From contig NZ_VRYY01000111.1 of NCBI RefSeq assembly GCF_015731765.1, positions 1 to 64,000 of the forward strand: DNA of 64,000 bases. Direction: 5' to 3'. The notes beneath the pieces were generated by a model. It made no database searches, had not been told where the DNA came from, and saw only the letters and a program-made list of their open reading frames with translations. Source of the DNA: Nitratidesulfovibrio oxamicus. Lineage in GTDB: Bacteria; Desulfobacterota; Desulfovibrionia; Desulfovibrionales; Desulfovibrionaceae. Below are positions 13,664 to 44,388 of this stretch, one piece after another. A program made the position numbers and the translations under genes. Within the stretch, counting starts at the first letter, position 1; every line of letters begins with the position of its first letter.

Positions 13664-13676
13664 ATGGAGCACGCAC

Positions 13677-16456: not shown

Positions 16457-16576
16457 ATGCGTTGGATGTACCTGTGCCGGTTCTGGCCGTGGAAGAGGTG
16501 CCTTCTGCCGCCTACGGAATGCGTCCTCTTTGCGGACTGTCCGAAGGTCCGCATCCCAAGGAGGATAAAGATATGA
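16457..16576 (+). CDS. Small Cys-rich protein
   Basis: A 39-residue frame with a strong AAGGAGG six bases before the ATG. It contains YLCRFWPWKRCLLPPTECV and a fourth Cys in FADCPKV, so a small metal-binding or disulfide fold is possible. Its stop overlaps the next ATG by three bases. No relative was recognised. Confidence 0.55.
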   Translation: MRWMYLCRFWPWKRCLLPPTECVLFADCPKVRIPRRIKI

Positions 16577-16644
16577 ACTGGGGATCAATCCTCGCCATCG
16601 CCATCGCGGTACTTAACATCGTCAAGGAGAGCATCGATGACTGA
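16573..16644 (+). CDS. Very short hydrophobic peptide
   Basis: A 23-residue frame (NWGSILAIAIAVLNIVKESI) in an ATGA overlap with the previous gene and with AAGGAGG upstream. It would form one membrane helix. Its coupling to both neighbours argues that it is translated. Confidence 0.45.
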   Translation: MNWGSILAIAIAVLNIVKESIDD

Positions 16645-16819
16645 CCACGAACCCGAGGACGAGGGAATGAACAGGGCCTGGGTGTTTCTTGGCGGCTGCC
16701 TAGCCGGTGTCGCTGGCGTGTTCGCTGCTGCCATATTGTCGGAGACAGGCACCACGAAAACGAACGATTGCGAGGAAGAACCGTTGGCGCTGCCTGAGGG
16801 CCGTCCCCAAGAGGAGTAG
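16637..16819 (+). CDS. Small membrane protein
   Basis: A 60-residue protein overlapping the previous frame by eight bases, with AAGGAGAG upstream. An acidic N-terminus is followed by one transmembrane segment (FLGGCLAGVAGVFAAAIL) and a Glu-rich tail. No family was recognised. It is part of a chain of coupled small ORFs at the end of module A. Confidence 0.55.
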   Translation: MTDHEPEDEGMNRAWVFLGGCLAGVAGVFAAAILSETGTTKTNDCEEEPLALPEGRPQEE

Positions 16820-20400: not shown

Positions 20401-20407
20401 GATTTAC

Positions 20408-20452
20408 TGGTTGCGGGGGCCGGATTTGAACCGACGACCTTCGGGTTATGAG
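20408..20452 (-). repeat. Displaced 3' half of initiator tRNA-Met (attachment site)
   Basis: Read on the minus strand, the stretch starts in a CAT anticodon loop (CTCATAACCCGAAGG) and continues through the T arm (GGTTCAAATCC) to CCCCCGCAACCA, the 3' end of an initiator tRNA. The 5' half, including the first strand of the anticodon stem, is absent. This is the scar left when an element integrates into a tRNA gene. The orientation implies that the element extends rightward and that the complete tRNA gene lies beyond its right end. Confidence 0.85.
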
Positions 20453-20658
20453 TTTATTAGTCCACGATATTCCTCACCTTTCCCGACCCACCCCAAGAAA
20501 TCACATTTAAACTATAAAAACAGAATATTGAAGAGAAATATTTAGCTCGAAAGCTCCCTAAACCTTCCCGAGATTTCGCGTTGTCACCCCGCAAGAGGTG
20601 GGGCTATAATGGGGCTGGCTCCCTTTTCGTGAAACATGCCCATCCCCGCGAGATACCC

Positions 20659-21846
20659 ATGACCACGACGACCTCCACCAGCTACCGCGGCGTTCGTTAC
20701 CGCGAAAGTCAGACCCGCAAACACGGCTCGAAGCCCGATCGCTATTTCTTCATCCGGTACAAATCCGATGGTAAACCGAAGGAAGAAGGTGCCGGGTGGG
20801 CATCCGAAGGCATGACCAGCCAGAAGGCATCTCAGCTGCGAGCCAGGATCACTGAGAATATCAGGCTGGGGCGACGCCCGCAGTCTCTCGCCGAAATGCG
20901 CGAGATGATGCGCGAGGCCCGCGAACAGGCCGCTGTTGAAGAGCGCCGTGCAGCCCATGCGGCCACAACCTTGGACGAATTCTGGGAGAGGCACTACCTG
21001 CCCTCCTCTACCCTGCACAAGACGCCACAGACAATGAGGACGGAATCCGGGTACTACGCCAAATGGATCAAGCCGGTACTCGGCAATTCCCCACTCAGCG
21101 CCCTTACCCCACCACTCATTGAGCAGGTAGCCAGCAACGCCATGACCGCTGGGCGAAGTGCGGCCACCATCCGCCACCTGCTGGCCATTATCTCCCAAGT
21201 CTGGGGCATGGCCCGGAATCATGAAATCGTGAGCGGAGAGTGCCCCTGCACGCGCATCAAGAAACCTCGCAAGGACAACAGACGGATGCGCTTCCTGACG
21301 GAATCCGAAGCAAGCATCCTACTCGCGGAGCTCAAGAAAAGATCGCAGGACACCCACGACAGCGCCCTGCTCTCCCTCTTCTGCGGCCTCAGGGCAGGCG
21401 AAATCCATGCGCTCACCTGGACGGACCTTAACTTCACGGCAGGGACCATCTACATCCGCGACCCCAAGAACAAGCACAGCAGGCATGCGTACATGACCGG
21501 CGAGGTCCGGGCGATGCTCACGGAACGCTCCCAGGGCCCGAACGGCACAGAGTACGTCTTCCCGGCCCAGAACGGCGCCAAGCGCAACTGGGTATCCGAC
21601 ACCTTCGAGCGCGTCGTCGAGCAACTCGGCCTCAACGAAGGGATCAGCGACACCAGACAGCGCGTGGTCTTCCATACCCTGCGCCATACGTTCGCCAGTT
21701 GGCTCGTGCAAGGCGGCACACCGCTGTATACCGTCGCCGAGCTCATGGGGCATACCACGCTTGAGATGACCAAGCGCTACTCGCACCTCAGCCCCGACAC
21801 GGTCAGGGCCGCAGCGATGAGCCTGCAGGGCAGACTCAGCAAATAG
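20659..21846 (+). CDS. Tyrosine-type site-specific integrase
   Basis: A 395-residue phage-type integrase. An N-terminal arm-binding part (SYRGVRYRESQTRK) leads to a SAM-like core-binding domain (about 105-205) and the catalytic domain. Catalytic residues are Arg245 in GLRAGE, His339 and Arg342 in HTLRHTFAS, His365 in LMGHTT and nucleophile Tyr374 in KRYSHLS. An upstream frame could extend it to 20581, but the ATG at 20659 matches the usual domain start. It lies 207 bases from the tRNA scar and points away from it, as expected for an element integrated at initiator tRNA-Met. Confidence 0.95.
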   Translation: MTTTTSTSYRGVRYRESQTRKHGSKPDRYFFIRYKSDGKPKEEGAGWASEGMTSQKASQLRARITENIRLGRRPQSLAEMREMMREAREQAAVEERRAAHAATTLDEFWERHYLPSSTLHKTPQTMRTESGYYAKWIKPVLGNSPLSALTPPLIEQVASNAMTAGRSAATIRHLLAIISQVWGMARNHEIVSGECPCTRIKKPRKDNRRMRFLTESEASILLAELKKRSQDTHDSALLSLFCGLRAGEIHALTWTDLNFTAGTIYIRDPKNKHSRHAYMTGEVRAMLTERSQGPNGTEYVFPAQNGAKRNWVSDTFERVVEQLGLNEGISDTRQRVVFHTLRHTFASWLVQGGTPLYTVAELMGHTTLEMTKRYSHLSPDTVRAAAMSLQGRLSK

Positions 21847-22987: not shown

Positions 22988-23022
22988 GCACGGCAGTGTC
23001 AGGCGAATACTATCTCTGTACA
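22988..23022 (+). repeat. 35-nt repeat, copy 2
   Basis: Identical to 8496-8530 except for one base and in the same orientation. It ends 35 bases before the stop of the glycosyltransferase-like gene. The flanking sequences of the two copies are unrelated, so only the 35 bases are shared. Confidence 0.75.
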
Positions 23023-23057
23023 CGCAAAGCGTATATCATATTTGCACACCAACAAAA

Positions 23058-24896: not shown

Positions 24897-25493
24897 ATGT
24901 TCATAACAGAAAAAACCCACAGAGACTATCCAGTTCAAGCGTATGACGACAAGCCCTGTCGTATCGACATACTCGATGCCATCATTGACCGCATTGAATA
25001 CATGACGAGTAGATTCAGCAGAGTGCTCTTCATCCGCTTTGACTTACGATATCCGAGAGACTTCTATTCATCCCGTGGAAACGACGACATTCAACGCTTT
25101 TTCAACAGCTTTACGCGCTATTTATCCCGCAAGGGGATAGCCTTCCAGTACGTCTGGGCACGTGAACAATCCAGAGAAAAACACCAGCATTACCACGTAA
25201 TGCTGCTGCTAAATGGAAATCTCACATGCCACAGTTGGAACCACATGGAGAAGGCAGACCAACTCTGGCAAAGTGCCCTTGGGATCGACTACCCAGGACT
25301 CCTCCATAGGTGTGACCGAAGCAGAGACGGCAACAGGCACCCTGACTTCATCCACTTAGATCGTCATGATGCCTGCTATGAACGAGATATTAATCGATGC
25401 GTGGAGTGGGCCAGCTACCTGGCTAAGACGAGGACCAAGGGCTACGCACCCCTGAATGTGAGAGAATGGGGAGCGAGCTTCCTTGGCAACTGA
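24897..25493 (+). CDS. HUH-type replication protein (inovirus Gp2 / YagK-YfjJ-like)
   Basis: A 198-residue protein. The HUH metal-binding pair His98-x-His100 lies in KHQHYHVMLLLN, and a likely catalytic Tyr174 with Lys177 lies in WASYLAKT. This is the arrangement of rolling-circle initiators and of the inovirus Gp2-like family found in satellites and integrative elements. AAAGGAG precedes the ATG. It is alone here, without coat or morphogenesis genes, and is probably a solitary replication remnant or part of a small satellite. Confidence 0.8.
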   Translation: MFITEKTHRDYPVQAYDDKPCRIDILDAIIDRIEYMTSRFSRVLFIRFDLRYPRDFYSSRGNDDIQRFFNSFTRYLSRKGIAFQYVWAREQSREKHQHYHVMLLLNGNLTCHSWNHMEKADQLWQSALGIDYPGLLHRCDRSRDGNRHPDFIHLDRHDACYERDINRCVEWASYLAKTRTKGYAPLNVREWGASFLGN

Positions 25494-26541: not shown

Positions 26542-29500
26542 TCATGAACCTGGGACCGTAAGATTCCTCAATTTGGCGAATATCTCTGTTGGATAGGCCG
26601 CACCCTCTACATACGTCTGCATTTCGGCGAGTTGCCTTCCTTGACTTGCAGGATCAACTGTAAAATCGAAGTGGCAGGCTGACCTATAGTTAGGGCTGGA
26701 GGTCGCACGCCAATAGGAGACCCCCTGGTCGAACCTGAGGCTTAGGCGTGTCCCGGTATTGAAATCGACGTCCAAAAGTCGACCGTGTTTCGTCGCCGAC
26801 TTATCGACTATCAGCACGCTTGCCTCAATCCCCTTGCAATGGAACGCGTGCGCTATAGCTTGATCGCGGGTTTCAAGGTCGAGCCAATCGCCCCATACGG
26901 TTTGCCGGGCCAAGTTCTCACCGAAGCTCCTCTGGCGGGTCGTGATGATTTCAAATTGGGGATTTGTCCACCTGTTCCGGCCAATCATCAGCCAGAGGCC
27001 TTCTATCAGCGCGGCCAGTAAGGCGACTGATAACGGGGTGAAGAGGTAACGGTCTTGGTAACGAACGCGAGCTATAGCTGCCTGAGGATCAGCCAGAAGC
27101 CTCCCAGACTCTACGTGCTCGGATGCAAGGAGCGACCAGAACTGGTGGCCAAACTCCTGTAGCTGCCCGTCGATCTCGTGGTGGACGACGAGCTCTCTGT
27201 CCCCCGTTTCTAGGCGAGGTGGCCGCATGGAACTTGACTCGAGCGTTCGGCCATTCAAGGCAAGGGAGGAGGAGACCTCCGCCTTGACCAGAGGGAGCGA
27301 TGCAATGCCCCAGGTCGGCCCGAATACCATCGCCGCATTGTCGCCAAACGCCCAGCGAATACTACGGTGGTTACTGTTAACCTCCGCAATCACGTGACCT
27401 CCGTTGGCGACTGGAATCGCAGAGACAACGAACACCTTAACTGCGGGATGATCCGCAAGGCTGGCAAGAGACAGAAGGTCCGCTTCGTCAGCCGATGCGA
27501 CGGCCGTCTCTGGAAGCACGAGTATGACCTCCCAGTCATTACCGGCAAGGCGATAGACCAGCTGGCGCAGCGGAGAAGTGCCGACGTCCCACTCCGCAGG
27601 GGTGCCGTCTGCAAACAGGCGGATGCTCACCCCATCCGCGTGCATTGCCTCACGCATGATCGCCTCAGGCAGAGGACTGTACTCAGCGCGGGAAGTGACT
27701 CCGAAATATGCCAGCTCCGCCGGCAGGGACAAGGTGTGTAACCATTTTTCCGAAAGCACCCGCAGAGCTGCATGCCGGTCGAGGTGGTCAGCCATGAACC
27801 GCTGATCGAAATCTAAAACACAGTGGGGGCAGGCGCTATCGCAGTTGGCCTTGCACAAGAGGTGCGACTTCGCGATGAAGAAGATGTCATCGATGAAGCG
27901 TTCGGCACTGGATGCATACCCCGCCGAGTGATGATCATAGATCAGGATCGACAGGCATCTTGCTTCAGGCTCTGGAGAGGATTCCTTAACGTCACAGCCA
28001 AATTCGGAGGCCTGGACCCCGAGCCATTCTGCGACGGCATCGCGAAGCGCCGTAGCGAGAGTCAGCGCCGCAACCCTATCCTGCAACCAGACGCCATCCT
28101 CCGTCTTAAGTTGTAGTTCCAAGACATCGGTAATCGCTTCGCAACCGAGGGTCAGACGGGTTTTTATCTTCCATGGATTATCGCTGCCCGGGCAAATCGG
28201 GTCTTCGGCTCTTCCGCCGCGAAGCTTGCGGTGGGGCTTTTGGAAGGTCGAGGGAAGGGCTCCATTCGTACCCATGGGCGCCGCGCGCCCACAAGCTAAG
28301 CAGAGGGCATACCCTGCCCCATAAATCCCACGGGATTGATGGAAGACATGTCCGCGGGAGGATGCGCGAAAGCGGCCGAGGCTGGGGTTGGGTAGGAGGC
28401 GCCAGTCGCCCCAAGCGCTGATCCATGGTGCCTCGACCGGCACAAAATGCTGCCGGGTAACATCGTTATGCGGGCTCTCGTACAAATCCACGGCAAATCC
28501 AGCAGGCTCTAAGAACTCCCGAATATTCATGGGTCGAATTGCATTACCACAGGCCTGACAGTGTTGACTGACGTCCAGGCTATGGCTCGAACCGCTGGCC
28601 CCACAGCGGTGGCAGCGCCAAGCCAAGCGGATATCCTGAATCTCCCGCACCTCCTGCAGAGACGCAGGCGAATGCCAATTCAGAGTGATGCCGGCAGAGC
28701 GGTAGACCAGCCCATCCATCACCACTTCAGAACCGGGTGCATACTCTCGGAGCGCCGTTACTCTATCGCGGCTGGCCAGTTCACGTCGGCGATAGCGATT
28801 ATCCTCCCGTCTCGCGTCCCACTTAAATTTTTTGAGCTGATCGACTGTAAGGTTGTCGAAGCTGGAGATATGCGACGGGAAACCATAGCCAGGGAGGAAC
28901 CCCTTCGTGGCCAGTTCTCGAAGCAGGTACTCGCCAGCCAGGCGGGACTTGTGGATGGACACTGCCTTGAAGGCAGGGCCATCATCACCTCCAGTCCTCC
29001 CGATTGCGTCCTCCTGGGTTTCGAGGGCCTTCCACTCGGCCACCCAAGCCTGCCCTACCAACTCCATGGCGTCCGCAGACTGTCGCGCAAGGCGTGCCGG
29101 ATGATACCCCTCGAAAACACTGTGTTTGACCATCCATTCAAGCCCCTTACCTACAGGGGCAGATGTGATCGGATCAAAGGCCCGGCACCAGGCGATGAAA
29201 TTTGTTGCCGGTTGCGAGGAGTCATTAAAAAACCATCCGCACGCCAGCTTTGTCTTCTCTTGGTGGGCGGCATCGAGGCGTTGTGCCAGAAAATGCGTGA
29301 GCAAGAAGGCGTTAACGTGGCGTTGTACGATAAGCTTGCTGTCCAGGGAAACCTGCGGCGCCGGAAGTGGAGTATCAAACGCCCAACGGCTATTGCTGAA
29401 AACCGCTTGGTCATGGGGGTTGGCTTTGCACAGGGTCATGGAGACTGAGCGGGTTTCCCGGCGCCGACCAGCCCGACCGGCTCGCTGCAGGTAGTTCGCC

Positions 29501-32500
29501 GGATGGGGTGGCACGTTATTCATGGTCACCATCGCCATGCCGCCGATGTCTATGCCCATCTCCATTGTCGTGGAACAAGAGAGCAAATTTAGGTCTCCGG
29601 CCTTGAAGGCTCGTTCGTACGAGCTCAAAGTGGACGAGTCTTGTTGCGCCGAGTGCTCCGCCGCCGTGAAGAAAGGGGCAAGCTCGATCACCCGATCATT
29701 AAGATCCGACCAGACACCTTCTTGCCGAAGCGGGTCGATTGAATCCTGTTTTGCCAGCCATTCTCGTCCTCGACGCATGCGGTCGAGGTCATCATACGCA
29801 CCACTGAAAGGCTCGTCATAAAGAGGCAGCTCAACCTCGACGCAGATGGTGGGATTGCCAAGGATCTCACGCGGCAAATAGGGCGACAGTCCTTTGAGCG
29901 TCGTATCCAAAAAACGCCGCGTGAACGGACAGATCCAGGCTTTAGTCTGGGGGGAGAAGGCCAGCCGATCCAACGGAGTTACCCGTCCATCCGCGGTCAT
30001 CTCAAACATGCCCGCAACCAGGAGAGCCTCCCATGCATACTGCAGAACTGTATCTACTCGGTCTTCGCCCTCGGCAGTCTGAATATCTGCCCGCAGAGCA
30101 TGAACGAGAAGCTTGATCAGTGAATTCTGTAAACCGCTCCGCCTGGCCCGCGGCCACCGTCGCTGGGACAATCCAACATGAGGTTCGTCGCGTCCGATAA
30201 TCCAGCTCTGAGGGAACGGAACCCCCAGCCAGCGCCGCCAAGTTTCCGGGATTCGTAGCGAGCCTCCCGAACGTACGAAAAAATCTATGCACAGCTTGAG
30301 AAAGTCGCGCCAATCTCCTGCCGTGAATCCTGAGGCTCGTACGACCTCCGTCGGAACACCTTGGATACTTTCCAGGGCCGGGTAGCACACTGTGACCAGC
30401 CCCATCGTTTCAAGGTTGTTCTGACGTTTCGGACGACGCCCGAATTCCCGCACCAAAAACAGTCTCGCCAACTCTGCGGAACCGGATACACTGCCAAAAA
30501 CATCCGGAGCGAACTTCTTGTAGTGCCTGAGCATACGATCAAAGTCGCTTCCTTGGTCGGCAAGCCGCTGGGCAAGTTCAAAAAAAGGAATCGGTTTGGG
30601 CTTGGCAAGGGCGGTGAGTTTGGCCTCCTTGTCTGCGATCATCGTAGCCAAGGCCTCGTTTTGCATCTGGCTCTGAACAACCTTGAGCTGATCAATCTCG
30701 CCTCGAAGCTGTACCGCAGCCCTGTTCGCCTGCTGCCGACCCTGCTGAATGGCGATATGGTATATGAGGCTTCGCACCCGCCCGCGTTCCGCGTCTTGCT
30801 GCAGCTTGGCAGCCATACGGGCTGCACCCTGGCGACTGTCGTTGAAGGTCAAGAGGCGCCGTCCGCGATACGGGTGGTCGGCGGGTTTATCCCCGTCGGG
30901 TGCATACTCCAGCATGGTTGGCAGGATGTTGCCTAGGAGAAATGGAGCTCCGATTCGCCCTGGTTGCAGCAGAGCTTTGCGGTCCGTCTCCCGACCTCCG
31001 CAGAAGGGGCACCCGATTCCCGAGGCCTCGGCCTCGCGAGCTATCACGCGCAGAGTCCCATCGGTTGCTTCGGTAATCCGCCTGCTTTTAGGCTCAATGT
31101 CGATTTCGCCAACGAGGCTGTTTGGCCGGGAGGAAGACCTGTTGGTGATGAGTACCTTGCGTTGCCTGGCAGAGGAGGCGGCCTCCTCGGAAGGTTCATC
31201 TTCTTCCTCTCCTCCAACTGTCGTCTCGACTTCGAGCTCGAACTCATCAACAGCTGACGTGGACTGAAGATGCGTAAGAAATCCTCCGGCCTCGCCTGCA
31301 AGCAGGTAGACTTCGCCGCACTCGTCGCAGGCGACGACTTCGTAGGCAGGGCTGCCGCATCGGCAATGCTTGCGCGGGTCAAAATAAACCTGTCCGAAAG
31401 GCCAATCTGGATCATCCAAAGTGGTTCCCGCCTTGGCAGGGCAAGCGCCATTGGCACAAGCCCATAGCCCGGCGAGCGTCTGGTGGAAAACATGGGTGCG
31501 CAGCGGCAAAAAGCATGCGCCATTGGAGTCGCTGGTCACCGAGAGCAGGTCCAGCCAGCGGAGGGCCTCCATCTGCGCCTCTGGGCTGGGCGGGGTATCA
31601 CCGTGAACAACCCGACAGACGTCCGACAACCGGGCGACCGGTGGACTGTTCTTGTTACCTACAAAGAGGTCGCGCAGCGTACGGGCGACATGGTGTTCCG
31701 CCAGGACCCGGTAGCGCACCTTTGAGCATTCCGCTTTTCTATCGACTCGCAAGAGCGCCTCGAGGGAATCTCGCCGCTTCGGTGTCCCCTCGGGCAAGCT
31801 CGGAACATGGCGTTCCCCGGAGATGAGGTGGACCCGGTCCAGGCTCACTCCAGCCGCCTCGGCAAGAAATCGCCTGAGTCGCTCCCCACCTTTGCCCTCG
31901 GGGTCACCGATCGTAGCCGACGTGGCTACGAAGCGGACCTTTTCAGGGCTCACCCCAAATGCGAAGAGCACGCGACGGATGAGCAGCGCAAGTTCCGCCG
32001 CTTGGGAGCCGATATAGGTGTGCGCCTCGTCGAGCACGACCCACTCGAGCCTGCCCTGCGACTCGTCAAGAATCGGCTTGTCGTTCGTCCGCACCAGCAT
32101 GTATTCCAACATGGTGGCGTTGGTGACCAGAACGGGTGGTGGCGACGAACGAAGCGTCTCTCGGTCCAGTACCTCGTTCGGGTGGTCCTGACGTTGCCGC
32201 TGCGGGACCTGCTCCGGAGTGTTTCCGTTGTATAAGCAGAAGCGGATGTCGCCCCCAAATGCGTGTGTCCAGGCCCGAAGACGGTCCCGCTGACTATTAA
32301 TCAGCGAGTTCAACGGATAGAGGAATAGAGCCCGCACTCCCGTCAGCCGGCCGTGTTTTTCCTCCCGTAGCCTTGCGAGCCGGTCGAGGATGGGAACCAT
32401 GAAACACTCAGTCTTGCCAGAGCCGGTACCGCTCGCCACCACCACCGACTGCGGCTGAGGTTGGGACAGGACTTGCCAAGCCTCTAGCTGATGCAGGTAT

Positions 32501-32811
32501 GGGTGCAGTTGCTTAGCGAATCGGTAGTCTTTCACAAGCTCCTTGGGAGGGGCGTCCATAGCTTCGACGAGGCCAGACGTCAGCAGGCCTCCCGCGAGAT
32601 CCTGCATAGTGGGCTTAGCCTGGCGCCAGCCAAAGACGGCCTCGAACGCGGGATCAGCCAGGAAACTGCCGCTCTCGCCAAAGGGGCTGGAAAAGGCTGT
32701 GGAAAGGAACCTCCTGAGAGGGACGTTCGAAAATCCTAGCCTATGGATAGTTGCCAGCGTGGACCTGCGGGCCAGTTGAGGCAACAGCTCGGAGAAATAG
32801 TTGTCGGTCAT
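26542..32811 (-). CDS. druE: DruE-like giant helicase (Druantia)
   Basis: A 2089-residue superfamily 2 helicase. The N-terminus IHRLGFSNVPLRRFL and SGSFLADPAFEAVFGW resembles DruE proteins. Walker A GTGSGKT is at 128-134, DEAH at 261-264, SAT at 298-300 and the arginine-finger motif QRAGRAGRR near 1110. A C-terminal DUF1998/MZB cysteine cluster (CDSACPHCVLDF) is near 1660, followed by about 400 residues ending the protein. The size and layout match DruE, the helicase common to all Druantia anti-phage systems. Its ATG overlaps the stop of the DruH-like gene (ATGA). The mechanism in this family is not settled. Confidence 0.85.
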   Translation of the reverse strand: MTDNYFSELLPQLARRSTLATIHRLGFSNVPLRRFLSTAFSSPFGESGSFLADPAFEAVFGWRQAKPTMQDLAGGLLTSGLVEAMDAPPKELVKDYRFAKQLHPYLHQLEAWQVLSQPQPQSVVVASGTGSGKTECFMVPILDRLARLREEKHGRLTGVRALFLYPLNSLINSQRDRLRAWTHAFGGDIRFCLYNGNTPEQVPQRQRQDHPNEVLDRETLRSSPPPVLVTNATMLEYMLVRTNDKPILDESQGRLEWVVLDEAHTYIGSQAAELALLIRRVLFAFGVSPEKVRFVATSATIGDPEGKGGERLRRFLAEAAGVSLDRVHLISGERHVPSLPEGTPKRRDSLEALLRVDRKAECSKVRYRVLAEHHVARTLRDLFVGNKNSPPVARLSDVCRVVHGDTPPSPEAQMEALRWLDLLSVTSDSNGACFLPLRTHVFHQTLAGLWACANGACPAKAGTTLDDPDWPFGQVYFDPRKHCRCGSPAYEVVACDECGEVYLLAGEAGGFLTHLQSTSAVDEFELEVETTVGGEEEDEPSEEAASSARQRKVLITNRSSSRPNSLVGEIDIEPKSRRITEATDGTLRVIAREAEASGIGCPFCGGRETDRKALLQPGRIGAPFLLGNILPTMLEYAPDGDKPADHPYRGRRLLTFNDSRQGAARMAAKLQQDAERGRVRSLIYHIAIQQGRQQANRAAVQLRGEIDQLKVVQSQMQNEALATMIADKEAKLTALAKPKPIPFFELAQRLADQGSDFDRMLRHYKKFAPDVFGSVSGSAELARLFLVREFGRRPKRQNNLETMGLVTVCYPALESIQGVPTEVVRASGFTAGDWRDFLKLCIDFFVRSGGSLRIPETWRRWLGVPFPQSWIIGRDEPHVGLSQRRWPRARRSGLQNSLIKLLVHALRADIQTAEGEDRVDTVLQYAWEALLVAGMFEMTADGRVTPLDRLAFSPQTKAWICPFTRRFLDTTLKGLSPYLPREILGNPTICVEVELPLYDEPFSGAYDDLDRMRRGREWLAKQDSIDPLRQEGVWSDLNDRVIELAPFFTAAEHSAQQDSSTLSSYERAFKAGDLNLLSCSTTMEMGIDIGGMAMVTMNNVPPHPANYLQRAGRAGRRRETRSVSMTLCKANPHDQAVFSNSRWAFDTPLPAPQVSLDSKLIVQRHVNAFLLTHFLAQRLDAAHQEKTKLACGWFFNDSSQPATNFIAWCRAFDPITSAPVGKGLEWMVKHSVFEGYHPARLARQSADAMELVGQAWVAEWKALETQEDAIGRTGGDDGPAFKAVSIHKSRLAGEYLLRELATKGFLPGYGFPSHISSFDNLTVDQLKKFKWDARREDNRYRRRELASRDRVTALREYAPGSEVVMDGLVYRSAGITLNWHSPASLQEVREIQDIRLAWRCHRCGASGSSHSLDVSQHCQACGNAIRPMNIREFLEPAGFAVDLYESPHNDVTRQHFVPVEAPWISAWGDWRLLPNPSLGRFRASSRGHVFHQSRGIYGAGYALCLACGRAAPMGTNGALPSTFQKPHRKLRGGRAEDPICPGSDNPWKIKTRLTLGCEAITDVLELQLKTEDGVWLQDRVAALTLATALRDAVAEWLGVQASEFGCDVKESSPEPEARCLSILIYDHHSAGYASSAERFIDDIFFIAKSHLLCKANCDSACPHCVLDFDQRFMADHLDRHAALRVLSEKWLHTLSLPAELAYFGVTSRAEYSPLPEAIMREAMHADGVSIRLFADGTPAEWDVGTSPLRQLVYRLAGNDWEVILVLPETAVASADEADLLSLASLADHPAVKVFVVSAIPVANGGHVIAEVNSNHRSIRWAFGDNAAMVFGPTWGIASLPLVKAEVSSSLALNGRTLESSSMRPPRLETGDRELVVHHEIDGQLQEFGHQFWSLLASEHVESGRLLADPQAAIARVRYQDRYLFTPLSVALLAALIEGLWLMIGRNRWTNPQFEIITTRQRSFGENLARQTVWGDWLDLETRDQAIAHAFHCKGIEASVLIVDKSATKHGRLLDVDFNTGTRLSLRFDQGVSYWRATSSPNYRSACHFDFTVDPASQGRQLAEMQTYVEGAAYPTEIFAKLRNLTVPGS

Positions 32812-35800
32812 TGGGCAAACTCGTTCTTTAGGAACCCGGCTGAAACGCTACGGGCAGTGCTCCAGTTGTAGGCCTCTTCGAACCAGTCGTGGTCGAAATC
32901 GATGTGCTTACGAAGGGCGTGGATCAAGGCGGGATTGTTGAGCCACTCGCGAGTGGCACCAATCGCCGCCTGGGTCGCCAAGAGAAGCGGCAGGTTGGTG
33001 ATGCCGTCGCGATAGCCTTGACTGTTCGGACTCAAGAAGCAAGCGTAGTTCCCATCCTGCCTCGCCTGAGCAATGTGAACCTTGAAATATTCCGGCCATT
33101 GGTCTTCAGCATGGCTTCTCAACAGGCGCTGCCAGGGGCTTGCGTCGCCATTAAACAGGATCCGGCCTATCTCATCGCTGCTGATCTTCTGGAAAAATTG
33201 CAGCTCCTGGGGCTGTTCCCCCAGGGCAGCAGCGCGCGCCAAGGCCACAGACCAACGAAGAGCCGGCCTACGCGACGTGATTTCGCCGAGTCTGCTTTTT
33301 AAATGGTCCTGAAACACGATTTCTGCCACTGCTTTGAAGTTTGACTCGCATTGGAGTCGAAGATTGCAGATAGCTTCCTTCCAAGCGACAAACGAGATGG
33401 TTTCCCACGCGAAAGGTAGCTCTGCGGCGAAACGGTCGATGAGGGAAAAGGGAATGGAGGAGAAGCGCATAGCCAAGGCTGCCATTGCCTTGTCGGACCG
33501 GGCAAAATGCCGCCACAGGTCGAGTGTGACCAGCGGCAGATGGCCGATTTGAGCGGCAAGTCGTTCAACGTAGCCCCAGTCTGGATTGAGGAGGTCGCGG
33601 CCAAGAATGCCGATCACCTCCTCGAGTGCTTCCTCCCGCTGCCCAGGGTCAGAAATGCCGATCGCCATGGTCAACATGCTCGTATCCGTCTTTTCGTCAC
33701 CGACCGTCCAAAGGGTTGGTCGGAAGACGAGATGTGAGCCTGCCGCAGGATATACCAGCCAGGACCCTGGCTCGCGATCCTCCGGGCAGAAATCCCAGGC
33801 GATTTTGGTGGGGTCCTTATATGGGGAGCAGGGCAGGCTCTGAGGTTCGTCCCCAGGTGAGTCAAGGCGCAAAGCCATAACGGGGAGTCCGCTCAGCGCT
33901 TCCGGCATGACGTTACCGTTAGCGTCCGCCCCTATGAGGATATGTCGTTCGGAGCGCTCAAGGCGGCATGCATAGCGAGCTATTCGTAGACAGGCGTAAG
34001 GCTCGCCACCGATCTGTGCGAACACTTCGACGTTTGCGTCCGGCCGATCATCGGTCGCCAGAAGATGGGCAATCTCTGTAGCGTAGTCCTGTAGCCGTAT
34101 TTCGGCATGCATCGAGCCGGTCGGCGGTGTGATCTGGCGGTTGATAATGTCCGGTTTACCTGCCAGTCGCAACTGCAGGCACATGCGGGGCAGGGCACTT
34201 GGGTTTCCACCGAGGAAGAGTATGCGAACACCGAGAAGCTGGTTTATCGCCAGAAGTGTGCCAGGTGACAGATTCTGTCCATTGGCAAAAATCCGCGCTC
34301 CTTGTACGGGAAAGGGAAGGCGCACTCTGGCGGGCTGCGTCGCATGCGGCCAGTGGATGTCAACTTCGATCCACTCTGGAGCCGGCTCATGGCCGCCCAT
34401 CTTAAGATCCGCGACCAAGTCGTTCCCATCGCGCCGAAGGACCGTTGTGATGTTCGCATGATCGATCCGAAGGCTGGCGGCTCCCCAGCGCACGAGGCGA
34501 ATGCTTCCTGATGCCGCATCACCTGACTCCAAGCGTACTTGAGCCGCACAGGGGAGAACGAGCATACGGACTCGTCCCCTAATCTCGCCTTCGATGGAAT
34601 GCCACATTTCGGTCAGTCCGAGTGGCTCCCTTAGGGATGTCGAACTTGCTCCCAAAGGACGCCAGCTGCCCTGTCCGGAGACAATGTGCCCCCCCCCGCC
34701 TTCATCCATACGATACATTCGCGGCTTGCCCAGGAATACCATCGCCGGACGAACAGCCATCTGCCACAGGCGTTGCCCTCGCCACTCGTAACTCTCCTCG
34801 CAAGCGTCGGCCCTGCCGGTACGGATGCGGCAAGATTGCTCGCCGTTTGCAAAGCGGACGTCACCGCGCACTCTATATATCTGCCTGCCGAAGTGGGGCA
34901 TGATCCCTTCTGAGGGCATTCCCTCGACATCGGCTTCCACGACATGCCACCCCTGTGGTAGCGCGACAAGAGCCTCGTTTGTGGCAATAGCGCCACCACC
35001 TTGCCGGAGCAATTTTGGGGCGTCATCCCTGGCGTCAAACACCCAGGGTAGCGCATCGTCTAGCGCTTCACCTCGTGGCGCCAAGGTGGCCCACTCTCGA
35101 CCGTCTGTGGTCGCAAGATGCACGACATGCTCGGTGGCAGCCCGTTCGGCAAAAAAGGTCCATGGGCACCTTTCTACCCGGTATTTATCCTGACCTGCCA
35201 GCTTGCGTAGCGAAGCTGCCAGTTCTGCGTCAGCCGCCTGCAACGTCAGGTGGAGAAACCTTGGCAGCTCGTTCGCGTCCGCACAAAAGGCACGCGCCAG
35301 TGCTTCGGAGTCGATTCCATCTGCCAGGGGAAGGACTGATCGCAGTTGCCAAGAGCCGGATTCGTCGCGCTCTATGGATCGTTCTACCCAGAACAACCTC
35401 GGTGGATGTTGTGTCTTTTCAGAAGCCGCATCCTTTATGATTTGGTCGATAAGGCCCTGAGCTTCTGTATCCTCAACCGATAGGGGAAAGCGATCACGCC
35501 ATCCTGGAACACGGCGATCGAGTTCCTCGATGACTCCCGCGCTTTGTGTCAGCCCTGCTTGCGTCTTGAGACTTAAGACAGTCGTGATGACGTCGGCGAG
35601 CAGCACAAAAATTTCGGACTGTCGGTAGGTGCGGGGAAGGTAATGATCCAGGCTCCGGACCCAGGCTTGGATTTCTATCGGGGTAACCTGCGCTTTCACT
35701 GCCTCCTTGAGAACGCATCGTAGGAGCATGCCCAAAGCCCCTTTTGCATCGGATAAAATCCGCATAGGGAGGCCGCCCTGCAGGGCAATATTCCCTATGT

Positions 35801-36215
35801 AGCGAAGTCCCACCGAGTCCCTCAAGGGCAGTCCCCACTCCTGCAGTCCAAGGGTCACACAGACGCTGCGCTTCGAATGAGTCCATCCGCTGGTATCCGA
35901 GCCGAGGTCGTGCAGGATGGGCTCCCATGCAAAGCCGCTCCCGTCATAGCGCCGTCGCCACCACTCAGCGGCATAAAGCACAAAAAGTGCTGGAAAAGAT
36001 GAGATATGTTGCCCTGCTAATTCTATCGCCGACAGGCTGTATCTCAGCTTCCCCAGCCGTTGGCCAAACTGCTCGAGTGTTCCCTTGAGAAGCGCCTCTA
36101 ACGAAAGAAACTCTTCGCCCGTGATCCGGTAGGCGTACAGCGGGCGCTCGTCAGGACCGTCAAGGGCCCGATCAGCCAGCATGTGCAACTTCCACTCATG
36201 AAATTGATTAGACAT
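32808..36215 (-). CDS. druH: DruH-like protein (Druantia type III partner)
   Basis: A 1135-residue protein without a recognised catalytic motif. The start at 36215 is chosen for GGAGAGG directly before the ATG; the frame is open to 36332. Druantia type III consists of a large protein of unknown function (DruH) and DruE, and the size, order and ATGA overlap fit that pair. The middle has beta-rich stretches (ARIFANGQNLSPGTLLAINQ) and the C-terminal third is helical. A nine-base G run (34689-34697) encodes four glycines and could slip. The identification is by context, not by motif. Confidence 0.72.
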   Translation of the reverse strand: MSNQFHEWKLHMLADRALDGPDERPLYAYRITGEEFLSLEALLKGTLEQFGQRLGKLRYSLSAIELAGQHISSFPALFVLYAAEWWRRRYDGSGFAWEPILHDLGSDTSGWTHSKRSVCVTLGLQEWGLPLRDSVGLRYIGNIALQGGLPMRILSDAKGALGMLLRCVLKEAVKAQVTPIEIQAWVRSLDHYLPRTYRQSEIFVLLADVITTVLSLKTQAGLTQSAGVIEELDRRVPGWRDRFPLSVEDTEAQGLIDQIIKDAASEKTQHPPRLFWVERSIERDESGSWQLRSVLPLADGIDSEALARAFCADANELPRFLHLTLQAADAELAASLRKLAGQDKYRVERCPWTFFAERAATEHVVHLATTDGREWATLAPRGEALDDALPWVFDARDDAPKLLRQGGGAIATNEALVALPQGWHVVEADVEGMPSEGIMPHFGRQIYRVRGDVRFANGEQSCRIRTGRADACEESYEWRGQRLWQMAVRPAMVFLGKPRMYRMDEGGGGHIVSGQGSWRPLGASSTSLREPLGLTEMWHSIEGEIRGRVRMLVLPCAAQVRLESGDAASGSIRLVRWGAASLRIDHANITTVLRRDGNDLVADLKMGGHEPAPEWIEVDIHWPHATQPARVRLPFPVQGARIFANGQNLSPGTLLAINQLLGVRILFLGGNPSALPRMCLQLRLAGKPDIINRQITPPTGSMHAEIRLQDYATEIAHLLATDDRPDANVEVFAQIGGEPYACLRIARYACRLERSERHILIGADANGNVMPEALSGLPVMALRLDSPGDEPQSLPCSPYKDPTKIAWDFCPEDREPGSWLVYPAAGSHLVFRPTLWTVGDEKTDTSMLTMAIGISDPGQREEALEEVIGILGRDLLNPDWGYVERLAAQIGHLPLVTLDLWRHFARSDKAMAALAMRFSSIPFSLIDRFAAELPFAWETISFVAWKEAICNLRLQCESNFKAVAEIVFQDHLKSRLGEITSRRPALRWSVALARAAALGEQPQELQFFQKISSDEIGRILFNGDASPWQRLLRSHAEDQWPEYFKVHIAQARQDGNYACFLSPNSQGYRDGITNLPLLLATQAAIGATREWLNNPALIHALRKHIDFDHDWFEEAYNWSTARSVSAGFLKNEFAQ

Positions 36216-36417: not shown

Positions 36418-37233
36418 CTAGCCCCCTACCTCCGACGGTCCGTTTTGGGGCGTTTGAGAAAAAGCGGAGCGCCAGCGCACCAACAACGCCACCAAATCAC
36501 CCTGTAATTGTTCGAGGTTATCAACAATCGCCGAATGAATAGCAGCATTAGTTCTACGCGCCTGCTCTTCATGCGCGAGATGCCCCCAATCGTCTTCAGG
36601 GACACCTGCAACTTCAGCATCTTCTGATGTCCAAAAATCAGTGGGCTCCAATACAGGCTCAAGATGCTGACGGTGGAATTCAAAGTATTCCCTCCAACCA
36701 TTCAGAACAGAGTACAACTGGGCTTCTTCATTATCCAACGCGCCCCACTCAACATCCGATATATCTCGATACGGCTCCGCTTGCGTAAGGAGAATTCCTC
36801 CAAACACTATGCGTCGCAAGATATCAAACATTTCGTACAAAAGATCATCGTACATGCCATCGCGCCGACAATAGGCCCAAGGATTGGCACTAGGCATGAG
36901 GCGGCTAAGCACCTTGATGGCATCCCGGAAACCACCCAAAGGATCAATAGGCTCCGGCAACGCCCGGCGATGAACCCACAGTTTCAGGATAAGGGTGACC
37001 GCACGTTCTTCAGCTACAATTCGCGCCCCGCCGGTGGCTGCGCCTGCCGCAGCGATTGTTTCCGCCAGGTGATGAGCCAGCCACCGCTCCAAAACGAACC
37101 CACGTTCATCCATCTTAAGCTGCCGAACTATCTCCTGACCAAGTGCCAACACATCCTTCGACGACTTCAAGGGTGCCTCTTCCTTGGAACCGGTAGAGGC
37201 GGTCAAACCGCCCTTCCGCGTCCTGCTGTTCAT
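36418..37233 (-). CDS. Helper protein downstream of the STAND ATPase
   Basis: A 271-residue, mostly helical protein. The start at 37233 is set by GCGAGGAAAATG, which makes the gene overlap the end of the STAND gene by 119 bases in another frame. A start at 37113, two bases after that gene's stop, would remove the overlap but has a distant ribosome site. DVLALGQEIVRQLKMDERGF and LERWLAHHLAETIAAA look like a helical motif seen in small proteins next to defence ATPases. No enzymatic motif is visible. It is probably an accessory subunit of the STAND system. Confidence 0.72.
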   Translation of the reverse strand: MNSRTRKGGLTASTGSKEEAPLKSSKDVLALGQEIVRQLKMDERGFVLERWLAHHLAETIAAAGAATGGARIVAEERAVTLILKLWVHRRALPEPIDPLGGFRDAIKVLSRLMPSANPWAYCRRDGMYDDLLYEMFDILRRIVFGGILLTQAEPYRDISDVEWGALDNEEAQLYSVLNGWREYFEFHRQHLEPVLEPTDFWTSEDAEVAGVPEDDWGHLAHEEQARRTNAAIHSAIVDNLEQLQGDLVALLVRWRSAFSQTPQNGPSEVGG

Positions 37234-40200
37234 TTTCCTCGCCAGTGTATTCTCTATATTTACGCCCACTACGCAACACCTCTACCTCTGCAATTATGTC
37301 CAGTCCCTCTTGCCTGAGATACTTTTGGACTTGCTGTTTGTGCGCTAACAGTCGCCATCCTGCTGCGGCGAATTCTAGCGAAACACGCTCGTCGTCCTTC
37401 TCACGATCTCCCCATACCTGATAAATAAACATAGGAGACTGATCAGAACTCCCCAGCCACTGCGCTTGCCATGTAGGGTCACGACGCAACCCCATAGCCT
37501 TGACAACACGTCTGCCTGGAGATGCGTTGATAAGCGACGCATAACCACGGAAGGGATCCTTCTCGTCGCAAGCGGCATCTCGATAAGATTTGAGTAACCA
37601 GCCCAAAAGTCGGTACGGAGCCTCATCAATCTCGTGATCCTCGTCCTCGTCCGGGAGCTTATAACTCCATGGATCATCCATCGTCTGAAGCGCACGCAAA
37701 AGCGAGCCTCCTCCCTCTGGGGTCACCAGTGCACTCGCAATGCGGATGATCTCTATTCGATCACGAGCCCGGCGCTCGAGCTCTCCACCCACGATCATGT
37801 AGTCTGGCATATCCTCAGGCAACAGTTCAGCCCGATGGTCAGCTTCCGTGACCCCTTCGACCCATTCGAACAAGCCATCTGAATTGGCTGCCCAGTTGGC
37901 CAAGACCCGCGGCACGGGGCTCAAGATATCTGCAGACCAAAGTGGAGGCTCAGTAACCATCGCCCGCTCTATACGTGCATGAAGACTGTCCCAATCGTCG
38001 CGATCACACTCACTGAGAGGCTCCGTCTTCAAAAGTTCACCAGCGGCACACCACATTCCATGCCATTCGAGGTGATTGTTAAAGCGTTCAAGCGTTGGAA
38101 TGTTTCCGTGCCGATTACTGCTAAGTCCCCAGTCATGCTCTCCGAACCGGCCTCGCCTCCGCTCTTTGCGAATTCCAGAAGCATCTCTGCCGTAGCCCCA
38201 GACATCGACAATCCAGCGCTCTGCCTCGTTGAGAAACCGCTCACCAGCCAGATTTGCAAATGCCCTTAGCATCGGTTGATACCAGTATGGAAGAGTATCC
38301 ATCTCATCGAATCTAAAACGATGTTCTTTGTCTGACCTAGAAAAATAACGATGACCATGCGGATTTTTTACCTGCCGAGGTAGCGAAGACTTGTTAACGC
38401 GGGATAAACGCTCTTTGACCTCACCTGTGAGATGAAGTGCACCGGCGGCATGAAGCTTCAGACAAGCGTCTCTAGCAAATGCCCTTACAAGGAGGTGTGG
38501 AAAATTTTCATCCAACGCGGTACTGAGAAGCAACGAGCTTGCACAGCCACAAATTTTTGGTGTTTCTAGGGCCAAACGATCCCACGCGATGGCGAACCAT
38601 AGTCGCGCTGATAACCAGTAAAACGCGACATCCTTCCCACGAAACACGAATTCCTCACGCCTGGTATATTGATGCACCAAGGCGCCGAGTGATGACACAT
38701 CATCCAAACGTGCCAACCGCCTGATGGCATGTGCAGCACGCCAACGCATCCGCACGTCGAAGTCCCCCAAATAGGCGAAGATAAAACGCGCGAACGCCTC
38801 CTCGATGTTCACGGGCAATTGCTCGATCGGCGCTGTTTGGTCTCGGTCATCGCGGGCAACACGGCCTGCTAACCGTGTAGCATACCACGTAGCAAGTTCG
38901 GCCGCTTGTTCAGGGACGAGTGCTACACCAGCCATTCCGACTAGGGCGAAGATGGCGTTCGGCGAGAGACTATCCACATGCGCCTCAATTCCCCGAAGGA
39001 TAATCTGGGAAATCTCCAAACCTTGCAATTGAGTACAGCCGAGGGCCTTTGACAACGCCTCGTCGCGATAATGTATATAGCGTGCAAACTCAGGCAGGCG
39101 AGCAACGATTATTTCGGGCAAGCTAACCTTACACCATGCCTTGACAGCAGGGCTATCCCACCACAACTCAATGGCACTGAGGAGAGCGTCGACAGCCTCA
39201 TTCGTAACCGTAAGCGCATTAAGGGCACCAAGAACAGCGAGGTGGTTCACCCTGTCGCGCGGCAGCACGGCTTCACGCGCAGAGCGGAGTATGTCGCTTA
39301 ATGGCGTATACGCCTTAGTTTCGCCCGCCACTTCAAGGGCGCAACCGACGGCTTCCCGGAATCTCTCGACGTCAATGAGAAGTTCCGCCGTCCAAGAATG
39401 ATTAATCTGTGCGGATGGAGCTCGCGCACTCGCCCTAGGGTAATCCTGCGGAAGCTTCTTCGGCAACGCCGACAAGAACCTGTCTTGTTCATCAAGCGCG
39501 TTTGTCCAGCGTCCACGGATACCCCGCTCTCGAACAAGACGAATCAACGTACCGTCCGTAATCTGCCGATGGCGTACAAGGGCGTCGTATGCGGCCTCTT
39601 CAGCCAACGATCCAAGCAACGGGGCTTGGCTGGATACGGCGGTAGCGAGGGCCTCCTGCATCACGCTGTCATCATGCAGGAACAGGTTAAGCGCAGCCGC
39701 CTGCGCTGGAGAAATCAAGCTCGTACGCAGCCCCGTCTTCAGGAGCGATGGTAGCGTCTCGGACAAAGCCACCAAGGCCTCATCGTCCCATCGGGCGATA
39801 TTACCAAGCGCCAGCGCGACATCTAGGCGAGTCAGTGCTGAAATTGCTTCTTGCCACGGAAAGTCCTCGTGTCCGTCCAACCTGATGGCTGCATCTGTAA
39901 TCACCTCTGAAACTTGGCGGGCTGTTCCGCGTGCATCATCGAAATAGCCATTACCCCGAGTTACCAACATATCGAGCAGGCGGAGTTGAGCCATCGCCTC
40001 ATAATCCAGTTCGCTAGCTGCTCTCACAGCGCTCGTGAAAACTGCCTCCGCATCATCAGGGCTAATCGGAAGGAGGAGACGAGCGTACCCGATCAGGGCT
40101 TTGGACTTTTCATCCGCACCTATGCGCATCCCGCAGGTCTGCTCTGCCCCTTTACCAAGCTCTGACACCAAATCAGAATGAAGTGCTTTCTGGAGGCTGA

Positions 40201-43200
40201 GTCGTGTAACGAGCTGCGCATCGGGCACTTCATTCCCGCGGCACCATCTGCCATAGACCTCGGTTGCAACCTCTTTTAACAGCTGCGCATTGTATCCCAC
40301 TCCGAAAAGCACAAGCAACGCTCTTGCCGCACATGCACGTCCTCCCCATGAGCCATATCGTTGTGAAATTCTCCACTCGTTACGCGCTACCAGGTCAGCC
40401 GCTTGGCGAATCTGTGTTTCGAGTTCACTCGGTGATGTGTGGTCAACTAATGCGCAGGCAACAGTCCGGTACACATCGAAATTAGTTCGTACAAGTTCCA
40501 TCAAATTTTGATCGCGGTGCTCTTCATAAGATTTTAAGCGACGCTGCGGTTCTTCACCGTCAGAAGATGGACGCGGTGCAAATAGTTTTGCAGAATCAGG
40601 ATTCCGTCCACTACGGGCCTCCCGAAGGGTATACGCCCTAAGCAACAAATCCAGCCTGTCAGACTCATGCTCATGGCGACGATCAATTCGGCGTAATTCG
40701 GGAGCTAAAAAATCGTCCAATATTGTATCTACAAGCTCATCCGCCGCACCTTGGCTTGTTAAAAGCTCACATGTCATCAGAGCGGCATCTAGGACTTGCC
40801 CGTGAGGTGAAGGCTGTCCTCCGTACCCTTTAAAGAAATGGGCGACCCTTAGCTTGCGTCGGCTAAGCGCACGGAGGCCCGTTTCAAGTACGGCGATGTC
40901 GATCGGCTGACCAGCCAGAATCAAAGGCAGTGTTATTAACAACTTACCAATGGGGCCCAACTTCTCTTCATCCAACAGCGCTCGGAGAAACTTGGCGTTT
41001 CCTTGGATGGCCAAGCGTATGGGCAGCGACAAGGCGACATCAAACATGATTTTTCTTGGTCGCCATGATGACAGATCCTCCATGGCCGAGGCGGCCCCGC
41101 TCAACCGAAGAGTCGATTCGACCTGGCTAGCAATATCAGAGGTGCTGATCTCCCACGCGTGACGAAGAACATTGCCCGCGTCACTACGGTAGTGGTCACT
41201 CCGCGCCTGCATCCAGGCGCGGAGGAGCCGCCTCCCTTCACGTACGGAAATGGCGTCATCGCGTTCCGCATCCACTGAGAGTCGTTGGAAGAGTAGGGAG
41301 CCGTGCGCCTCAATACGCTCAGGGTTCGAAAGAATTAGCCGCCTAGTTGTCTCGTAGGCAAAACGGACCGTCAGATCTGGATTGCCTGCCAGTATGTCCT
41401 TCAAGGCTGTCTCTGTCCTGAGCCCCTCTGCCCCGATCAAAATGAAACGGATCGCTCGCACAACGTCACCGGCTTCACGGCAGACTTTGATTGCCAGTCG
41501 CAAACGTTGAAGCTCTGCTTCGCGGCGCAGCACAGGCTCCTTGATAGCTGCCGGGGAGGGGTCACGTTCCACTAGATCAAGAAGATCAGCACCCCGCCCT
41601 GCCAAAAATAAGGCCATGGCGACATTATGAGCCGCGTAGTTGTCTTCGGAGCTGTAAGAAAGAAACCAATCGGCCGCCGTTGCACGCACCTCATGAAGAT
41701 ACTCACCCCCTTTGTTCCGAACAAAATGTTCGAAATCTTCATCCGCAAAGCTCACCGTGCCAGTATGTAGTTGGATACCCGGAGCGAGATCCACACACAC
41801 GTCAGCCAACCGTTCTTCCGGAATTTGCAGCACGGCGGCAAGGGCCGATAGGGGGACAGGACGCGGCAGAGCGACAAGCCCGGCGCATAGCCTTTCCACT
41901 TCGGCCTGACTCCCGCTTTTCGCCAAGGCTTCGCGGAACTGTTCGTGGAAGACATCGTCCAGAGATTTTCCCGTTGGTCGAAGTCGGTCGAGAGCGCCCG
42001 AAGGCTGAGCATCGCCAACCTGAAACGCATACTTCTGCACGCGCGGCACTCCTCTCGAAAGATGGTGAAAATCTTCCACCCAGTCTTCGGGGGCGTCCCA
42101 CACGCAAGCCACGCTCTCTCCCGTTTCGGACCGCGTGAACGGTTCAATCTGAACAGTTTGGTACCAAGGGGGGATAGCCAACTGACGAAGCTTACCGGTT
42201 CGAGCAGTAATAACGAGACGGACGTTTTGCGGTGCCCTCTCCAGCAAGCGTACAAAGTCGTGAACAAACGAAGCCTCGACAGGGACACGGGCTTCCGCTG
42301 CGGCCACCGAATTGTCCGCAGCATCAACTGCAATTACGATTAGCGCCCCCGGATCCTGGACGCTCATCGCTGCAGCGGCATGACATAGTCGTGTTGCGAA
42401 CTGTCTGGAATAATCCAAGCCTGAGCGGCGACTGAGGAGGAGCGGCAACCGTAATTGAGTAGCAAGTTCGTTTGTCAACTGAAGAAATGCGTCGACTGAT
42501 CGATGACGGAGAGCGCTAGGATCCATGTAGCGCCCACCACCATAGCAGTCGTATGTGATCATAACGGAGCCGGGGGGAAGTAGCGATCTGATCTCCTGTA
42601 GAGCGGTTGTTTTGCCTACGCCTCCTTGGCCGTGAAGACAGACATGCTGTGCTCCTTGTAAAAGACGATCTGCGGCATCACACACAGAAGCTCTGCTGAC
42701 AGGGTTATCGACCAGCACAATCTCAGATGGGCATGGGTAGATTGCCGTCATTTCCGATGCCCCAAGATGAAGCATCACGGACTCTCGCGTTATGCGCTCT
42801 CCTGCGAACTCTGGCCGCATGCGATCACGGACGAATTGCCGTAGCCCAACAACGGAATGTTGAATGTCGTGGGCGGTCCATTCTCCGATTGCGCGAAGAA
42901 TTTGTTCCTCTATGGCAAAACGAGACCCCGCCTTCCCTTCGAACCGAAGAGACGCAGCAAAATCCTGAAACTCCGCTGTTGTCAGTCCTGAGGCATAGGC
43001 AAGGCGCAGTTCCGGTGCGCTAGTAGTTCCAGGCTTTTCCTTGGGTACGTCAATTCCCTCCGCAACCCGGATTAAAGCTGTAAAGAGATCGTCGTTTATT
43101 GGTTGATTGGTGACAAGAGCAACTTCTGGTATAGGAAGAGATTGCCGCAAAGCTGCCATGCTTTTCCAAGCAAGCGCAAGCCTAAAAAGAACAGATTTAT

Positions 43201-43513: not shown

Positions 43514-43868
43514 ACTCCCCCTACGTTCAGAAACCTACCCGATCCAGCCACTCACACTCAATGACATATGTTCGAAAAACGAATCGCAACACCTTACAAC
43601 ATATTTTCAAGTAGACGTTAATATTTTCCCGAGCCGAGAACAACAGCCCCTTCGCCAGTGCAAGGCTGATTCCTAAGGAAACGGGAGCGTCATGACCTAT
43701 ACCCGCCGGTATATGCTTTAGGTCATGCTCGGCGTGGTGACTGACGGCCATGAGACGAAGAGAGACCCACGAGGCAACGCGCGTCTCGCCAACCAATCCC
43801 CCGTATCACTGACATCTTCCGTACAACCGGCAATGCCAACACCGCCTCGGCTCGAGTGCACAAAAACA

Positions 43869-43911
43869 CCCCACCCAGCCTTGGAAGCGCCACGGCCAAG
43901 GCTGGGTGGGG
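43869..43911. terminator. 16-bp hairpin
   Basis: CCCCACCCAGCCTTGG pairs perfectly with its complement around an 11-base loop. No T run follows. It may be a terminator remnant or an RNA structure. Confidence 0.55.
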
Positions 43912-43919
43912 TACCGACA

Positions 43920-43946
43920 AGACGGCCACCCGCAGGATGGCCGTCT
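43920..43946. terminator. Second hairpin
   Basis: AGACGGCCA pairs with TGGCCGTCT directly after the 16-bp hairpin. The tandem arrangement suggests an old terminator region. Confidence 0.5.
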
Positions 43947-44388
43947 CGCGTTTTGTGGTGAGAAGCAGAATTCGCTAGCCAACGCGTTACGAGTACCCTC
44001 CACAAACGCAATCCTCACCCTGCATCATAAACGCTCTGTAGGCGTTTTTATTTGACGCGAAAAGCGTATTCCGACAATATCCCCCCAGCCGTTGGCGTGA
44101 GAGACCTTTTCCCTCGGATAGGCATCGTATGAGTGTCCCACATTCGTCGGTGTCGCCCCTAACCGCACGCCCGGCACCCAGGCCATCTGTGGCAGCCATG
44201 CAGGCAGCGCCAGCATGCTTTGGCAGGGCCGCCTACTCGCAGCGGCCTGTAACCAGCCACAGCCGCCATCTTCCGGCTTGATGCCGGGAAAGGCGCAGTG
44301 GCACCGCCCAGTTTCCGGCAAGTGCGCGAGTCCCATATCCACAAGCCACCATCCGTGCGGATGCGGAATGATGCAGCCATTACGTACG

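What the first reader, a model, noticed from the sequence alone, without database searches (positions are those of the whole stretch)
26542..36215. Druantia type III-like defence pair
A 2089-residue DEAH helicase with a DUF1998/MZB cysteine cluster overlaps by ATGA with a large motif-less partner of 1135 residues. Druantia type III is defined as DruH plus DruE, and size, order and coupling fit. The partner is identified by context only, so it could also be a new variant.
Basis: partly seen in the sequence, partly recalled or inferred. Interest (0 to 1): 0.7.

Follow-up and report, generated by a model that had tools for sequence, protein, structure and literature searches.

The report
Druantia type III anti-phage gene pair
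The two large adjoining genes are a complete, recognisable copy of a known bacterial anti-virus system (Druantia type III), carried on a mobile element in what is probably a sulfite-reducing bacterium; the identification is sound but ordinary.

Summary
The observation and its reading both hold. The 2089-aa protein (26542-32811, -) matches the PADLOC DruE3 profile over its full length (2334 bits; DruE1 536, DpdJ 91, BrxHI 84, DrmA 41). Solved E. coli DruE (9tu7) and DruH (9tud) are the nearest structures. In all 13 other replicons examined that bear this DruH family, a DruE-type helicase follows it on the same strand. The residues shown essential in E. coli for ATP hydrolysis and ssDNA binding are identical here, and most of the mutationally defined DruH N-terminal surface is kept. 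The C-terminal assembly and nucleotide pockets seen in E. coli DruE are not conserved, here or in most relatives. The pair lies beside a divergent AVAST type 3 (Avs3) locus, on an element bounded by a 46-nt exact repeat of the 3' end of tRNA-Met next to a tyrosine integrase; the far end lies outside the window. All seven congeners held lack DruH. The mechanism was already published in 2026. Verdict: new member of a known kind, low interest.

The parts
32808..36215 (-). druH, 1135 aa, YjiT/STY4851 family; upstream gene of the pair
   Evidence: PADLOC DruH3 PDLC00048 418 bits over 10-1032/1036; NF038336 647 bits, cut-off 150; PDB 9tud DruH E=1.6e-27
26542..32811 (-). druE, 2089 aa, YprA-family SF2 helicase with C-terminal PLD-type region
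   Evidence: PADLOC DruE3 PDLC00037 2334 bits over 2-2053/2055; PDB 9tu7 1175 bits over residues 5-2042
32808..32811 (-). ATGA overlap of druH stop and druE start
   Evidence: sequence; same 4-base overlap in L047
31906..32502 (-). DruE RecA1 (DEAD/DEAH, residues 104-302)
   Evidence: PF00270 5.4e-22; K133, R177, D261, E262 identical in 9/9 DruE aligned
27817..28059 (-). DruE MrfA Zn-binding domain (MZB / DUF1998, residues 1585-1665)
   Evidence: PF09369 1.7e-07 over 1-80/80; Cys pairs
26722..27054 (-). DruE C-terminal PLD-like region; invariant D1920, Y1922, H2009-x-R2011, D2028
   Evidence: invariant in 9/9 DruE aligned; assignment to the active PLD module inferred from PMC13192584
37115..43513 (-). 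neighbour, not part of the pair: divergent Avs3a (AVAST type 3) STAND NTPase/nuclease
   Evidence: PADLOC PDLC02167 666 bits full length; NF041816 726 bits, below its equivalog cut-off 2800
36418..37269 (-). neighbour: Avs3b-like small gene (frame from GTG; true start uncertain)
   Evidence: PADLOC PDLC02168 7.5e-18 over residues 35-133
20407..20452 (-). left end of the carrier element: 46-nt 3' fragment of tRNA-Met, exact copy of the 3' end of the whole tRNA-Met at contig position 76820-76896 (outside the window)
20581..21846 (+). tyrosine integrase of the carrier element
   Evidence: PF00589 2e-32; phrog_1 integrase 1.2e-65
24897..25493 (+). replication-type protein (YagK/YfjJ C-terminal, REP ORF2/G2P-like) of the carrier element
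   Evidence: PF11726 1.3e-15, PF23343 1.7e-08

Best explanation
A complete Druantia type III anti-phage system, druH-druE, carried as cargo on a tRNA-Met-integrated mobile element. Most likely DruH senses an infection cue, probably a phage structural protein, through its N-terminal surface and central Ig-like region. DruE, a dimeric YprA-family helicase, loads on 3'-tailed single-stranded DNA made during phage replication and cuts phage DNA with its C-terminal PLD-type domain. Shown here: family identity, gene order and coupling, and conservation of the ATPase and ssDNA-channel residues and of most of the DruH N-terminal surface. Inferred from work on the E. coli and Mycolicibacterium systems: sensing, unwinding, cleavage and protection. 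Nothing has been tested for this copy.
For: Full-length DruE3 and DruH3 profile matches far above every other helicase system. Nearest solved structures are E. coli DruE 9tu7 and DruH 9tud. The DruH-then-DruE order on one strand holds in 4/4 family genomes with DruH, this one included, 8/8 plasmid-collection records opened and 2/2 viral contigs with a DruH match. DruE and DruH divergence go together across 9 pairs (r=0.98; r=0.82, permutation p=2e-4 without the close pairs). E. coli DruE residues needed for defence, K121, R165, D251, R1135 and R1372, are all identical (mutants). Of the DruH loss-of-function surface, F69, E75, R78/R79, W88, W115 and G136/G137 are identical (mutants). Published mechanism: PMC13192584 and PMC13316683.
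Against: No activity was tested. DruH is only about 22% identical to the copy of the characterised E. coli cluster. E. coli residues R1258 (PLD pocket, needed for defence), H1572/H1574, R2075, N1987, Q1990 and Y1995, and DruH R1064/K1067, are not kept at the aligned positions, though most relatives lack them too. The two 2026 papers disagree on whether DruH and DruE bind each other stably and on which protein carries the nuclease.
Confidence: 0.92

Rival explanations
1. The locus is Druantia III by descent, but in this branch the DruE nuclease is switched on by another route than the C-terminal assembly and nucleotide pocket seen in E. coli.
For: The E. coli C-terminal assembly residues (H1415, K1546, H1572, H1574, E1913, E1961, R2075) and pocket residues (R1258, N1987, Q1990, Y1995) are replaced here; an H-x-R ... 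D set (H2009, R2011, D2028) is invariant instead.
Against: Low-identity C-terminal alignment; Q1244 sits next to R1243, so a one-residue slip could restore an arginine; single-sequence fold of this region was too poor to check (pLDDT 40).
Confidence: 0.2
2. The helicase belongs to another YprA-family defence system (DISARM, Dpd, ARMADA, Druantia I, II or IV) and the neighbour is an unrelated gene.
For: All share the YprA-type helicase core and most the MZB/DUF1998 module.
Against: DruE3 outscores DruE1, DruE2, DruE4, DpdJ and DrmA by about 1800 bits or more; no Vsr-type domain at E<=0.1, which ARMADA I/II and Druantia I/II carry; the DruH match is independent and strong.
Confidence: 0.01
3. 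Druantia III and the adjacent Avs3 locus form one co-operating module.
For: Same strand, about 200 nt between the avs3b-like stop and the druH start; synergy of Druantia III with other neighbours is published.
Against: The nearest relative of the pair (L047, 81% and 77% identity) shows no gene of Avs3a size in the 19 kb examined; the one large AAA ATPase beside another DruH (Methylocystis) matches no defence model.
Confidence: 0.1

Closest known systems
E. coli Druantia type III (cluster 11; DruE 9tu7, DruH 9tud; PMC13192584)
   Same: Two genes in the same order; full-length homology of both; identical ATPase and ssDNA-channel residues; most of the DruH N-terminal functional surface
   Different: DruE about 36% and DruH about 22% identical to the Klebsiella copy that shares its numbering; C-terminal assembly and nucleotide pockets not kept; neighbour is Avs3, not Zorya II or ARMADA II
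   Same: DruE 81%, DruH 77% identical, lengths equal within 4 aa, same 4-base overlap
   Different: No Avs3a-sized gene in the 19 kb around it; different neighbours
Mycolicibacterium smegmatis DruH-DruE (PMC13316683)
   Same: Two-component type III system
   Different: Its DruE is stated to be 1667 aa without a canonical nuclease domain; here 2089 aa with the C-terminal region

Membership tests
Druantia type III | DruE of the type III clade | tested here: met
   PDLC00037 DruE3 2334 bits over 2-2053/2055; DruE1 next type at 536 bits
Druantia type III | DruH (YjiT/STY4851 family) partner | tested here: met
   PDLC00048 418 bits full length; NF038336 647 vs cut-off 150
Druantia type III | druH and druE adjacent, same strand | tested here: met
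   ATGA overlap; same order in all 13 other replicons examined with DruH
Druantia type III | SF2 helicase motifs and MrfA Zn-binding module in DruE | tested here: met
   K133, D261/E262, R1113 identical to mutationally tested residues; PF09369
Druantia type III | Two C-terminal PLD domains in DruE, the last active | tested here: inconclusive
   Region present and aligned to 9tu7 up to residue 2042; H-x-R and D invariant in 9 DruE; no Pfam PLD match and the fold attempt was too poor
Druantia type III | Protection against phages | not testable with these tools
   needs a plaque assay
DISARM / Dpd / BREX | DrmA, DpdJ or BrxH as best profile match | tested here: not met
   41, 91 and 84 bits against 2334 for DruE3
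ARMADA I/II, Druantia I/II | C-terminal Vsr-type nuclease domain on the helicase | tested here: not met
   no Vsr match at E<=0.1; feature from PMC12458937
AVAST type 3 (neighbour 37115-43513) | Avs3a equivalog score | tested here: not met
   NF041816 726 bits, cut-off 2800, though full length; PADLOC Avs3a 666 bits: a divergent relative

The most novel reading that the evidence does not exclude
Outside the E. coli cluster, Druantia III DruE does not use the C-terminal assembly interface and PLD-pocket nucleotide site described in E. coli; the conserved catalytic set is H-x-R ... D (H2009, R2011, D2028), so nuclease control differs between branches of the family.
Probability: 0.2. Interest if true: 0.4.

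Novelty: new member of a known kind. Interest (0 to 1): 0.15.

Why it matters
It adds a well-supported Druantia III pair from a lineage far from the E. coli and Mycolicibacterium systems studied so far. That helps to tell which parts of the published mechanism are general (ATPase, ssDNA channel, DruH N-terminal surface) and which may be specific to the E. coli cluster (C-terminal assembly).

Tried and rejected
Direct-repeat search for attachment sites inside the window found none; the second copy lies beyond the window end. ARAGORN and Rfam find no RNA gene in the window because only the 3' part of the tRNA is there. The single genome-contig scan with DruE returned only one relative. A viral-contig scan with the DruH alignment was impossible, no conserved stretch. 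Single-sequence fold of DruE residues 1709-2089 gave pLDDT 40 and was not used. RecD in the host genome gave only a sub-threshold match (271 bits, cut-off 310), so the published RecBCD link could not be carried over. No paper in the library joins Avs3, Druantia and 'defense island', or Bilophila and Druantia.

Full report
What is there. The window holds two coupled genes on the minus strand: 32808-36215 (1135 aa) followed by 26542-32811 (2089 aa), overlapping by ATGA.

What it is. PADLOC models name the helicase DruE3 (2334 bits, full length) and the partner DruH3 (418 bits, full length); NCBIfam names the partner YjiT/STY4851 family, 647 bits against a cut-off of 150. DISARM, Dpd and BREX helicases score 41-91 bits, and the other Druantia DruE types 349-536. 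The nearest solved structures are the E. coli DruE (9tu7 and five more entries, 1175 bits) and DruH (9tud, E=1.6e-27).

Is the pairing real? In the host's family, DruH occurs in 4 of 288 genomes, and each has a DruE directly downstream (in one, G010, DruH is split into two frames and DruE runs off the contig). All eight records of the plasmid collection that were opened show the same order (in Marinobacter the helicase is interrupted by an insertion sequence). Of seven viral contigs with DruE-like helicases that were checked, the two that best match this DruE (54% over its first 343 residues; full length at 35%) carry DruH and the other five do not, though contigs may be fragments. Across nine pairs the divergence of the two proteins is strongly correlated (r=0.98; 0.82 with p=2e-4 after dropping the close pairs); relatedness of the hosts was not controlled for. 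This agrees with the congruent DruE and DruH trees in PMC13192584.

Does the machinery look intact? Using the Klebsiella copy (L055), whose numbering equals that of the E. coli paper, residues of the helicase pocket (G118, S119, K121, R165, D251, E252, R1135) and of the ssDNA path (N156, R207, N221, Y227, R231, R647, R652, R1372) are identical in the window and in all nine DruE. In DruH, F69, E75, R78, R79, W88, W115, Y128, G136 and G137 are kept; H85, K87, Y114, L129, T131 and L132 are changed. Eight CxxC-like Cys pairs are present in DruE. Not kept are the E. coli C-terminal assembly residues, the nucleotide pocket of the PLD domain including R1258, and the DruH dimer-interface nucleotide residues; most other relatives lack them too, and the alignment there is weak. 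Instead H2009-x-R2011 and D2028 are invariant in nine DruE; I read them as the PLD-type catalytic set, an inference.

How it works. From the 2026 studies: DruH senses infection, probably a phage tail or baseplate protein; DruE loads on 3'-tailed ssDNA, unwinds, assembles and cuts; in mycobacteria the pair blocks phage DNA circularisation and replication. The papers differ on DruH-DruE binding and on the source of the nuclease. For this copy only the anatomy is shown.

Surroundings. Upstream on the same strand lies a divergent Avs3a (37115-43513) with an Avs3b-like gene. The island is part of an integrated element: a 46-nt exact copy of the 3' end of tRNA-Met at 20407-20452, next to a tyrosine integrase (20581-21846), with the whole tRNA-Met at contig 76820-76896, about 56 kb away and outside the window. 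A replication-type gene and an SNase-domain gene lie between the integrase and druE. This resembles the integrase-plus-replication-gene elements with tRNA repeats described as carriers of Druantia III, but those repeats are 16-20 nt and a HUH nuclease was not shown here. The region left of the repeat matches sequence that a congener carries beside a tRNA-Met, so two related elements probably sit in tandem. None of seven congeners has DruH, in keeping with horizontal gain.

Host. The genome has a dissimilatory sulfite reductase alpha gene (658 bits, cut-off 393), and its class yielded only 348 genomes in the collection; a Desulfovibrio-like bacterium is my inference, not a test.

Verdict. Correct finding, well-known system, new member of a known kind.

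Noticed in passing
36418-43513 (-): Divergent AVAST type 3 locus: Avs3a-like protein of 2132 aa matched at full length but far below the equivalog cut-off, with an overlapping Avs3b-like gene.
   Followed up: partly
20407-20452; contig 76819-76864: 46-nt exact direct repeat of the tRNA-Met 3' end bounds a 56-kb element whose right end lies outside the window.
   Followed up: yes
12000-16801 and 58838-61541 (plus contig 70435-72473): A module of AAA (MoxR/CbbQ-like), DUF3150 and CobT/VWA genes occurs twice at 92-94% identity, as in two related elements in tandem; DUF3150 relatives lie mostly on conjugative plasmids.
   Followed up: partly
43660-43955 and 55964-56269; 8496-8530 and 22988-23023: Short sequences repeated in this contig and in congeners (about 65-98% identity), often at the ends of conserved blocks.
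   Followed up: no
17114-19573 (-): 819-aa protein with an AAA_25 (RepA-like) domain and a weak winged-helix match at its end, near the left attachment repeat.
   Followed up: no
window 29080-29082 (DruE Q1244) in alignment A1: The E. coli DruE residue R1258, described as lying in the active PLD pocket and needed for defence (PMC13192584), is not conserved among nine DruE (Q, Q, K, Q, D, K, R, Q, A).
   Followed up: partly
L051 1587-7370 (Methylocystis parvus plasmid): A 1927-aa AAA-family ATPase upstream of another DruH-DruE pair matches no PADLOC model.
   Followed up: partly
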